DNA of 64,000 bases from positions 992,001 through 1,056,000 of the forward strand of contig NZ_CP031834.1 in assembly GCF_003590645.1 (NCBI RefSeq), written 5' to 3'. The position numbers and the translations under genes were made by a program. This document shows, piece by piece, positions 15,657-56,324 of the stretch. Below the pieces are notes generated by a model, which was not told where the DNA came from, did not search any database, and was given only the letters and a program-made list of their open reading frames with translations. Every line of letters starts with the position of its first letter. The first letter of the stretch is position 1. The DNA comes from Mesorhizobium sp. DCY119. GTDB taxonomy: Bacteria; Pseudomonadota; Alphaproteobacteria; Rhizobiales; Rhizobiaceae.

Positions 15657-15809
15657 CCCCCCTCTCCGTCGCGCTTCGCGCGCCACCTCTCCCCCATTTC
15701 ATGGGGGCGAGGAATCCAGGTCCTGAAGCGTCGTGGCCTAACAGAATCCAGGTTCCTCGCCCCATGAAATGGGGAGAGGTGGCTCGGCGAAGCCGAGACG
15801 GAGAGGGGG
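15657..15809. repeat. Palindromic repeat family A, copy 1
   Basis: A 153-bp inverted repeat whose outer arms read CCCCCTCTCCGTC and GACGGAGAGGGGG. Each arm carries a smaller hairpin (CCCCCATTTCATGGGGG on the left, CTCGGCGAAGCCGAG on the right). The same element recurs at 39607, at 53053 and, split by the IS110 insertion, at 54996/56175. It lies between the convergent GGDEF and IorB-like genes. It has no coding role. Confidence 0.9.
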
Positions 15810-39505: not shown

Positions 39506-39606
39506 TGGCTGTCGCTTTCTATCGTCGTTGCTGGCGGTGAGCCTGCCCGAGTGCGAAGCTGTTACCAACGGTCCAGAGATGAAAAAGCGTTGTCCGCGCT
39601 TCAGCG

Positions 39607-39757
39607 CCCCCTCTCCGTCTCGCTACGCGAGCCACCTCTCCCCCATTTCATGGGGGCGAGGAACCCAAGTTCTGTAAAGCCGCAACCTCAATGGGTGCCG
39701 GTTCCTCGCCCCGCTTGCGGGGCGAGGTGGCTCGGCGAAGCCGAGAGGGAGAGGGGG
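39607..39757. repeat. Palindromic repeat family A, copy 2
   Basis: A 151-bp inverted repeat with the same outer arms (CCCCCTCTCCGTCTCG / CCGAGAGGGAGAGGGGG) and inner hairpins as the copy at 15657. It lies between the GNAT start and the MoxR stop. Confidence 0.9.
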
Positions 39758-39762
39758 ACTTG

Positions 39763-53052: not shown

Positions 53053-53205
53053 CCCCCTCTCCGTCTCGGCTTTGCCGAGCCACCTCTCCCCCGCTTTGCG
53101 GGGGCGAGGAACCTAGGTTCTGCGAGGTTGCGACATTTCAGGACTTGAGTTCCTCGCCCCATGAAATGGGGAGAGGTGGCTCGGCGAAGCCGAGACGGAG
53201 AGGGG
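53053..53205. repeat. Palindromic repeat family A, copy 3
   Basis: A 153-bp copy with intact arms (CCCCCTCTCCGTCTCGG / CGAGACGGAGAGGGG). It lies between the convergent MBL and FAD dehydrogenase genes. Its CCACCTCTCCCC stretch is the same site that the IS110 element has split in copy 4. Confidence 0.9.
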
Positions 53206-53218
53206 CCTTTGTGCCCCG

Positions 53219-54871: not shown

Positions 54872-55055
54872 CTTGCTCCCCTCCCAAGGCGGCTTGGTGC
54901 CGCGAGCAGTTTGGGGGAATGGGTTTTGAGATCAAGCGGGAAATTCTGGGAGAGGGGGTGACGGTGGGGAAGGGGCGTGCAGAAAGAAAGGGGCGCCTCT
55001 CCGTCTCGCTGCGCGAGCCACCTCTTGGATGTTTGAGTTGCGGTATAGACTGGAT

Positions 55056-55200
55056 TGCCGGGTGGGTAGCAGCCCACCCGGCATCCGGTTGTCGGATCGT
55101 CCATCTCGAAGTCTTTTGGACTGCGGGGAGCAAGATCGCGACCGGTTCTTCATCAGGCCCGCATGGTTGCGTGAACGCTTCGGTTCGAATCCAAGACAGG
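55056..55200 (+). ncRNA. Putative IS110 bridge RNA
   Basis: It begins with a perfect 11-bp stem (TGCCGGGTGGG-TAGCAG-CCCACCCGGCA, 55056-55083). A target loop follows: CCATCTC (55101-55107) equals the target's left side CCACCTC except one base that still pairs as G-U, and GCGGGGAG (55123-55130) is complementary to its right side CTCCCCGC. A donor loop comes next: CATGGTTGC (55162-55170) equals the element's right end (56165-56173), and ATCCAAG (55189-55195) is complementary to CTTGGAT at its left end (55024-55030). The ends of the RNA are estimated. Confidence 0.75.
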
Positions 55201-55210
55201 GACGAGGAAG

Positions 55211-56158
55211 ATGGTAGAGATTAGCATGATCTGCGCCGGATGCGATGTGTCCAAGACGAAGCTGGACATTGCGCTCTATCCCGGCACTGCGTTCCTGAGC
55301 GTGGCCTATGACGCGGCCGGGCTCAAACAGCTCGATGCCTTCCTGAAGAAGCATCGTGTCGCCCGTGTCGGCTTCGAGGCGTCTGGTGGTTATGAATGGC
55401 GGCTTTTGGCGCATTTGCGCCGTGGGCCGGTTGCGGCGGCGCGCTTCCAGCTCGGCCAGATCAGGCATTTCGCCAAGAGCCGGCTGCAATGGGCCAAGAA
55501 CGACCGCCTCGACGCGGCGCTGATCGCCGCCTTCACGGCGAGTATCGAGGAACTGCCGCCGCTGCCGGATGCGCGCTTCGACGAGCTCAATGCCGAGATG
55601 ACCTATCTTGAGCAATTGGAGGCGCGGATCGCCGTCTTGAAGACGATGGCGGAGACGACAATCCTCGCTCGGCTCAAGCGCCTGCACGAACACGACATCG
55701 CCCGCCTTGAGACGCGTCGCAAGGCCCGGATCGCGCTGATCGCCAGGCAAGCGGCCCAGGACGCCACGCTGGCGCATCGCCTCGACTTGCTCGTCTCCAT
55801 CAAGGGCATCGGCCTGCGCACCGCACTGTCGCTCGCTATCCGCCTGCCCGAACTCGGCAGCATCGGCCGGGGCCAGATCGCCGCTCTCATCGGCGTGGCG
55901 CCCTACGACGACGACAGCGGTGGCAGGCGCGGCCGTCGACATATTCGCGCCGGACGCACACGGCTGCGCAAGAGCCTGTTCATGAGCGCGTTCACCGCAT
56001 CCCAACATAATCCAGATCTCCGGGCCCACTATCAGCGCATGCGCGCCGCCGGCAAACATCACCTCCTGGCAATCGTCGCAGTAACCCGAAAACTCGCCAT
56101 TCTGGCCAATGCCGTCATCGCAAGGGGAACACCTTGGACACCAGTCCATACGCGATGA
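55211..56158 (+). CDS. IS110-family transposase (DEDD-serine recombinase)
   Basis: A 315-residue IS110 transposase. The N-terminal RuvC-like DEDD residues are Asp12 (CDVSKTKLDIA), Glu56 (VGFEASGGYEW) and Asp98/Asp101 (KNDRLDAALIAAF). The C-terminal domain has VSIKGIGLRTA and the active serine 236 in APYDDDSGGRRGRRHIRAGR. Both catalytic parts are intact, so the element may still be mobile. ATG 55211 directly follows GAGGAAG; ATG 55226 is a possible alternative. Confidence 0.93.
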   Translation: MVEISMICAGCDVSKTKLDIALYPGTAFLSVAYDAAGLKQLDAFLKKHRVARVGFEASGGYEWRLLAHLRRGPVAAARFQLGQIRHFAKSRLQWAKNDRLDAALIAAFTASIEELPPLPDARFDELNAEMTYLEQLEARIAVLKTMAETTILARLKRLHEHDIARLETRRKARIALIARQAAQDATLAHRLDLLVSIKGIGLRTALSLAIRLPELGSIGRGQIAALIGVAPYDDDSGGRRGRRHIRAGRTRLRKSLFMSAFTASQHNPDLRAHYQRMRAAGKHHLLAIVAVTRKLAILANAVIARGTPWTPVHTR

Positions 56159-56324
56159 TGCAAACATGGTTGCTCCCCGCGAGCGGGGCGAGGAACCCAA
56201 GTTCTGAAATGACTCGGCCCCGCAGAATCTAGGTTCCTCGCCCCATGAAATGGGGAGAGGTGGCTCGGCGAAGCCGAGACGGAGAGGGGCAACTCCAGCG
56301 AGACGCCAGCGCCCGCCGTCTACC

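What the first reader, a model, noticed from the sequence alone, without database searches (positions are those of the whole stretch)
55026..56174. A readable IS110 bridge RNA in an element caught inside its target
The IS110 element at 55026-56174 interrupts a repeat whose uninterrupted sequence is visible three more times in this window, so its empty target is known. In the left end, two separated segments match the two sides of that target around the CT core (CCATCTC for CCACCTC with one G-U pair; GCGGGGAG against CTCCCCGC). A second loop matches the two element ends (CATGGTTGC exact; ATCCAAG against CTTGGAT). This is the arrangement established for IS621-type bridge RNAs, here resolved without alignment. 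Match lengths of 7-9 in four segments of the right order and orientation are hard to explain by chance, although no statistics were run.
Basis: partly seen in the sequence, partly recalled or inferred. Interest (0 to 1): 0.88.

Follow-up and report, generated by a model that had tools for sequence, protein, structure and literature searches.

The report
Bridge-RNA IS110 element in a repeat
A small bacterial jumping gene carries an RNA that spells out both its landing site and its own ends; the landing site it spells is a repeat of its host genus, and relatives whose RNA spells something else sit at correspondingly different sites, so this is a well-documented new member of a known kind of RNA-guided mobile element.

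Summary
The 1,149-bp element (55026-56174) has an intact 315-aa IS110 recombinase, and its left end folds into a 5' hairpin, a target loop and a donor loop. The target-loop guides match the two sides of the CT insertion point and the donor-loop guides match the element's own ends (0 of 3,000 shuffles). The empty site exists in a sister species at the same place, reading GCCACCT-CT-CCCC. The element has no second copy, so I tested its relatives: across 26 guide classes from 55 insertions, guides fit their own targets far better than swapped ones (LTG 7.0/8 against 4.6; RTG 6.6/8 against 4.6; 0 of 20,000 permutations each). The target repeat has 64 exact sites in this genome and 75 in its sister but 0-1 elsewhere; the nearest relative's guide instead fits a repeat common in its own genome (46 sites). 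This is a new member of the IS621-type bridge-RNA IS110 group, related to ISRm19. Expression and activity are untested.

The parts
55026..56174 (+). IS110-group insertion element, 1,149 bp counting one copy of the CT core (56173-56174); the other CT is at 55024-55025
   Evidence: sequence; boundaries confirmed by the empty orthologous site in a sister species
55211..56158 (+). IS110 recombinase, 315 aa: RuvC-like DEDD domain and Tnp domain with a DSG..RG serine motif
   Evidence: Pfam PF01548 4.8e-11 and PF02371 8.6e-16; NCBIfam NF033542 1.8e-39, 135.8 bits against a cut-off of 140; PDB ISCro4 5.6e-16 and IS621 7e-14
55056..55083 (+). 5' stem-loop of the bridge RNA
   Evidence: 11-bp perfect inverted repeat; forms in the fold
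55085..55145 (+). target-binding stem-loop (TBL)
   Evidence: fold; covariation on 9 and 33 distinct sequences
55101..55107 (+). left target guide CCAUCUC, pairs with the bottom strand at t2-t8 (one rU:dG at t5)
55123..55130 (+). right target guide GCGGGGAG, pairs with the top strand CTCCCCGC (t15-t8)
55131..55132 (+). TBL handshake guide CA, complementary to donor d7 G and d6 T, not to target t7 T and t6 C; gives an 11-bp match GCGGGGAGCAA / TTGCTCCCCGC to the right junction
   Evidence: pair I23
55146..55210 (+). donor-binding stem-loop (DBL)
55162..55170 (+). left donor guide CAUGGUUGC, matches the right end CATGGTTGC
55189..55195 (+). right donor guide AUCCAAG, pairs with the left end CTTGGAT
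55196..55197 (+). DBL handshake guide AC; A pairs with target t7 T, C does not pair with t6 C
55044..55049 (+). -10-like TATAGA; the -35-like TTGCTT, 17 bp upstream, exists only when the right end (56170-56174) is joined to the left end in the circle
55029..55035 (+). left subterminal inverted repeat ATGTTTG
56161..56167 (+). right subterminal inverted repeat CAAACAT, in a mirror position about the core
54991..55025 (+). left part of the interrupted palindromic repeat, with the left target GCCACCT-CT
56173..56290 (+). right part of the interrupted repeat, starting with the right target CT-CCCCGC
15660..15800 (.). uninterrupted copy of the target repeat (two inverted arms)
39605..39760 (.). uninterrupted copy of the target repeat
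53055..53215 (.). uninterrupted copy of the target repeat

Best explanation
It is an IS110-group element of the IS621 type. After excision, the joined ends form a promoter that transcribes a bridge RNA of about 155 nt from the left end. The recombinase binds this RNA. The target loop pairs with both strands of GCCACCT-CT-CCCCGC in a palindromic repeat of the host genus, and the donor loop pairs with the element's own joined ends around CT. Strands are exchanged at CT, helped by handshake bases that pair with the incoming DNA, and the element is inserted without loss or gain apart from the core. Shown by sequence here: the anatomy, the empty site, guide-target and guide-donor matching across the family, the covarying structure, the handshake matches and the split promoter. 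Inferred from IS621: transcription, RNP formation, catalysis and the order of steps.
For: Chance test 0/3,000 and 0/2,075. Guide-target fit over 26 classes: LTG 7.02/8 against 4.56 (sd 0.21) shuffled, RTG 6.63/8 against 4.62 (sd 0.23) in 23 classes, 0/20,000 each; without core positions 6.09/7 against 3.85 and 4.63/6 against 2.62. Element ends were placed with the donor guides and core, not the target guides, so the target test is independent. Structure: 12 pairs with two-sided changes on an unfitted alignment, 0/500 shuffles. First TBL handshake base pairs with d7 in 22 of 23 classes and with its own target in 0; DBL handshake base pairs with t7 in 19 of 26 and with its own donor in 0. Junction promoter at a fixed 17-bp spacing across most of the family. 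Empty site in a sister genome. Homology to IS621 and ISCro4, whose structures are solved.
Against: One copy only, so present activity is unproven. LTG fits its target over 7 nt with one wobble and a mismatch at t1. The second DBL handshake base does not pair. The isolated fold lets the two target guides pair partly with each other, and the whole 185-nt left end folds differently. NCBIfam score is just below its cut-off. No expression data. The classes are related, so the permutation figure is not a strict probability.
Confidence: 0.93

Rival explanations
1. The element recognises the folded shape of the palindromic repeat through the protein, and the guide matches are a by-product of the element having evolved beside that repeat.
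For: Many IS110 elements sit in REP-like palindromes, here and in Tobes and Pareja 2006 (PMC1525189); the target here is such a palindrome.
Against: Two relatives use different CTs, three bases apart, in the same kind of palindrome (GCCGGCAC-CT-TCTCCCC for the Sinorhizobium type, GGCACCTT-CT-CCCC for the Rhizobium type), each with its guide in the matching register. One Sinorhizobium copy lies in what reads as ordinary coding sequence, GTCGGCAC-CT-TCTCCTGG, matching its guides with one mismatch on each side.
Confidence: 0.03
2. The matches are a chance reading of a GC-rich non-coding end.
For: Guides are short, and the target is C-rich and the guide G-rich.
Against: 0/3,000 shuffles, 0/2,075 other 185-mers and 0/20,000 class permutations.
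Confidence: 0.01
3. It is a correctly built bridge-RNA element that no longer moves (a recent immigrant now stuck, or inactive in this host).
For: Single copy with 64-77 matching sites available.
Against: Recombinase frame, both ends, guides, structure and junction promoter are all intact; absent from the sister species, so the insertion looks recent.
Confidence: 0.25

Closest known systems
IS621 (IS110 group, Escherichia coli) and its bridge RNA (Durrant 2024, PMC11208160; Hiraizumi 2024, PMC11208158)
   Same: RNA in the left end; 5' stem, target loop then donor loop; LTG/RTG/LDG/RDG order and strands; CT core; target in extragenic palindromes; handshake guides; promoter across the circle junction; DEDD plus serine recombinase
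   Different: Recombinase only distantly similar (7e-14); target guides read a different repeat; RDG pairs continuously over 7 nt, whereas in IS621 it is interrupted; RTG about 7 nt against 4 in IS621; 7-bp subterminal inverted repeat against the 2-3 bp reported for the group
ISRm19 (IS110 family, Sinorhizobium meliloti; that the pSymB copies found here are ISRm19 is inferred from family, REP insertion and copy number)
   Same: 45% identical recombinase; same bridge-RNA architecture found by the same model; inserts in palindromic repeats (4 of 4 in PMC1525189)
   Different: Different target guides and a different CT within its repeat; two extra bases (GCG before CT) between the LDG-matching sequence and the core
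ISEc21 and IS1111-type elements with seekRNA (Siddiquee 2024, PMC11187229)
   Same: Non-coding RNA with matches to both target strands; natural reprogramming described
   Different: IS1111 types carry the RNA downstream of the gene and have longer subterminal inverted repeats; this element has it upstream

Membership tests
IS110 group, IS621-type bridge-RNA element | DEDD RuvC-like plus Transposase_20 recombinase of about 300-460 aa | tested here: met
   315 aa; PF01548 and PF02371 above their cut-offs; NCBIfam IS110 equivalog 135.8 bits against 140, just below
IS110 group, IS621-type bridge-RNA element | long non-coding left end upstream of the gene, short right end | tested here: met
   left end 185 bp, right end 16 bp
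IS110 group, IS621-type bridge-RNA element | RNA with 5' stem and two stem-loops with internal loops | tested here: met
IS110 group, IS621-type bridge-RNA element | target loop matches bottom strand left of the core and top strand right of it, covarying with target | tested here: met
IS110 group, IS621-type bridge-RNA element | donor loop matches the element's own ends | tested here: met
   LDG 8/8 and RDG 7/7 for the window
IS110 group, IS621-type bridge-RNA element | CT core and insertion without target duplication beyond the core | tested here: met
   empty site in sister genome
IS110 group, IS621-type bridge-RNA element | handshake guides pair with the non-cognate DNA | tested here: met
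   3 of 4 bases in the window; first TBL base in 22/23 classes
IS110 group, IS621-type bridge-RNA element | promoter reconstituted at the circle junction | tested here: met
   TTGCTT-17-TATAGA, by sequence only
IS110 group, IS621-type bridge-RNA element | RNA is transcribed, bound by the recombinase and needed for recombination | not testable with these tools
   needs small-RNA sequencing and recombination assays
IS1111 group | bridge RNA in the right end and subterminal inverted repeats of 7-17 bp | tested here: not met
   RNA is in the left end; an inverted repeat of 7 bp exists, at the lower limit, but the right end is only 16 bp
Rfam families | match to a curated RNA family | tested here: not met
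   nothing near a gathering score

The most novel reading that the evidence does not exclude
Bridge-RNA guides of this lineage have evolved to follow host-specific palindromic repeats: a few changes in the target loop separate this element, which reads GCCACCT-CT-CCCC (abundant only in the window's genus among the genomes tested), from its Rhizobium relatives, which read GGCACCTT-CT-CCCC, while other relatives read another register of the same kind of palindrome. The family would then be a natural experiment in guide retargeting, including a branch whose donor guide stops two bases short of the core.
Probability: 0.5. Interest if true: 0.5.

Novelty: new member of a known kind. Interest (0 to 1): 0.4.

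Why it matters
It shows that a bridge RNA can be read, end to end, from one raw sequence and then verified independently by comparison. It adds a distant group of bridge recombinases with known natural targets and an independent check of handshake pairing on 26 guide classes. The link between guide and host-specific repeat makes the natural retargeting of these elements directly testable.

Tried and rejected
Other copies in the same genome: none. Viral contigs: no relatives. Rfam: only chance-level matches. Folding the whole 185-nt left end gives a misleading topology because the first 30 nt are probably not transcribed. First automatic end-finding misplaced several right ends and some Bradyrhizobium left ends; I then required the CT core, gave left-end motifs by hand for ten loci, left out three loci whose ends were unresolved, and allowed a guide register shift of 0 or +1, given equally to swapped pairs. 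Considered and rejected: an IS1111 element; structure-only targeting; the tRNA-like GGTTCGAATCC at 55182-55192, which is the donor-loop apical stem plus RDG and varies in relatives. S. meliloti small-RNA papers were searched for IS110 without a useful hit.

Full report
Observation. The element runs from 55026 to 56174 with CT at both junctions. Its flanks rejoin to GAGCCACCT-CT-CCCCGCGAGCGGGG. The uninterrupted repeat is present three more times in the window, each with two inverted arms. A same-genus genome has both flanking genes, 92% identical, with only the repeat between them, and the pattern GCCACCTCTCCCC spans the insertion point. The boundary and the core are therefore established by a real empty site as well as by reconstruction.

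Protein. The 315-aa frame matches both IS110 Pfam domains and, among solved structures, only ISCro4 and IS621. The NCBIfam IS110 model scores 135.8 bits against a cut-off of 140, so the element is a divergent member.

RNA. A combined score for each loop is not reached in 3,000 dinucleotide shuffles of the left end or in 2,075 other 185-mers of the window. Nine relatives aligned without reference to structure give a two-stem-loop consensus with two-sided changes in 12 pairs against 3.2 in shuffles. A covariance model from them finds the same RNA in other genomes of the family and order. On 33 distinct sequences 24 of 27 pairs show two-sided changes, although that alignment was fitted to the model. 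Folded from the predicted start, the window RNA forms the 5' stem and both loops.

Guides follow targets. For 55 insertions in 26 guide classes, element ends were placed with the donor guides and the core (ten left ends by a motif given by hand), and the target guides were then scored against the flanks. Own targets score 7.02 of 8 (LTG) and 6.63 of 8 (RTG, 23 classes); swapped ones 4.56 and 4.62, and no permutation of 20,000 reached the real value. The classes are related, so this is not a strict probability, but closest relatives show the same. The window guide fits its own target 6.5 of 8, and by hand count from the sequences it fits that of its Rhizobium relatives 3.5 of 8; the reverse is 7 against 4.5. 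Sinorhizobium-type and Rhizobium-type elements use different CTs of the same kind of palindrome, with guides shifted to match. One Sinorhizobium-type copy (L045) lies in what reads as coding sequence, with one mismatch on each side.

Handshake bases and promoter. In IS621 the bases after the right guides pair with the other DNA during strand exchange (PMC11208158). Here the base after the RTG pairs with donor d7 in 22 of 23 classes and never with its own target; the base after the RDG pairs with target t7 in 19 of 26 and never with its own donor. The window's CA fits donor G and T, giving an 11-bp match to the right junction. For the DBL base the excess over shuffled classes is weak (620 of 20,000 shuffles reach it), because t7 is nearly always C or T. 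Across the joined ends lies TTGCTT, 17 bp, TATAGA; the same spacing carries the best -10 in most relatives, and in the integrated state the -35 is replaced by host sequence.

Host repeats. GCCACCTCTCCCC occurs 64 times in this genome and 75 in its sister, but 0 or 1 times in five other genomes of the order. GCACCTTCTCCCC, which fits the Rhizobium-type guide, occurs 46 times in the genome of that relative, 22 in the Sinorhizobium-type genome and 19 and 14 in the window's genus. The guide thus fits a repeat that is abundant in its own host. Which direction the change took was not tested.

What is known. IS621 bridge RNAs (PMC11208160, PMC11208158) and seekRNAs (PMC11187229) establish the mechanism, and REP targeting by IS110 elements, including ISRm19 of S. 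meliloti with 4 of 4 copies in REP sequences, was reported in 2006 (PMC1525189). Natural reprogramming has been described for ISEc11 and ISXne4. The present element is a new member of that kind. Its transcription and activity remain inferred.

Noticed in passing
L038, L041-L046 (S. meliloti and S. kummerowiae megaplasmids): All ISRm19-like copies with a readable right end have GCG before the CT core, so the sequence matched by the left donor guide stops two bases short of the core, unlike in the window element; the elements have nevertheless spread.
   Followed up: partly
window 54991-55025 plus 56175-56290, 15660-15800, 39605-39760, 53055-53215: A palindromic repeat with 64-75 exact GCCACCTCTCCCC sites per genome in this genus and almost none in other genomes tested; resembles the mosaic palindromic repeats known from rhizobia.
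   Followed up: partly
L028-L031 (genome G446): Four copies of a related element; one (L028, scored as L067) sits at a target that fits its guides poorly (LTG 5.5/8, RTG 5.5/8), a possible off-target insertion.
   Followed up: no
L045, left junction of the element (within about 1-360): An ISRm19-like copy interrupts a frame that reads like a SulP-type transporter (MIMVSVGT-FSWRSILDLRRNPLP), apparently outside any palindromic repeat.
   Followed up: partly
window 55029-55035 and 56161-56167: A 7-bp inverted repeat in mirror position about the core, longer than the 2-3 bp reported for the IS110 group; relatives L067 and L040 have 6 bp at the same place.
   Followed up: partly
L070, L076, L078, L080-L083 (genome G747): Seven copies of a distant relative, at sites of the form (C/T)CATC-CT-TCGAGAC that fit its guides; a good multi-copy test case.
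   Followed up: partly
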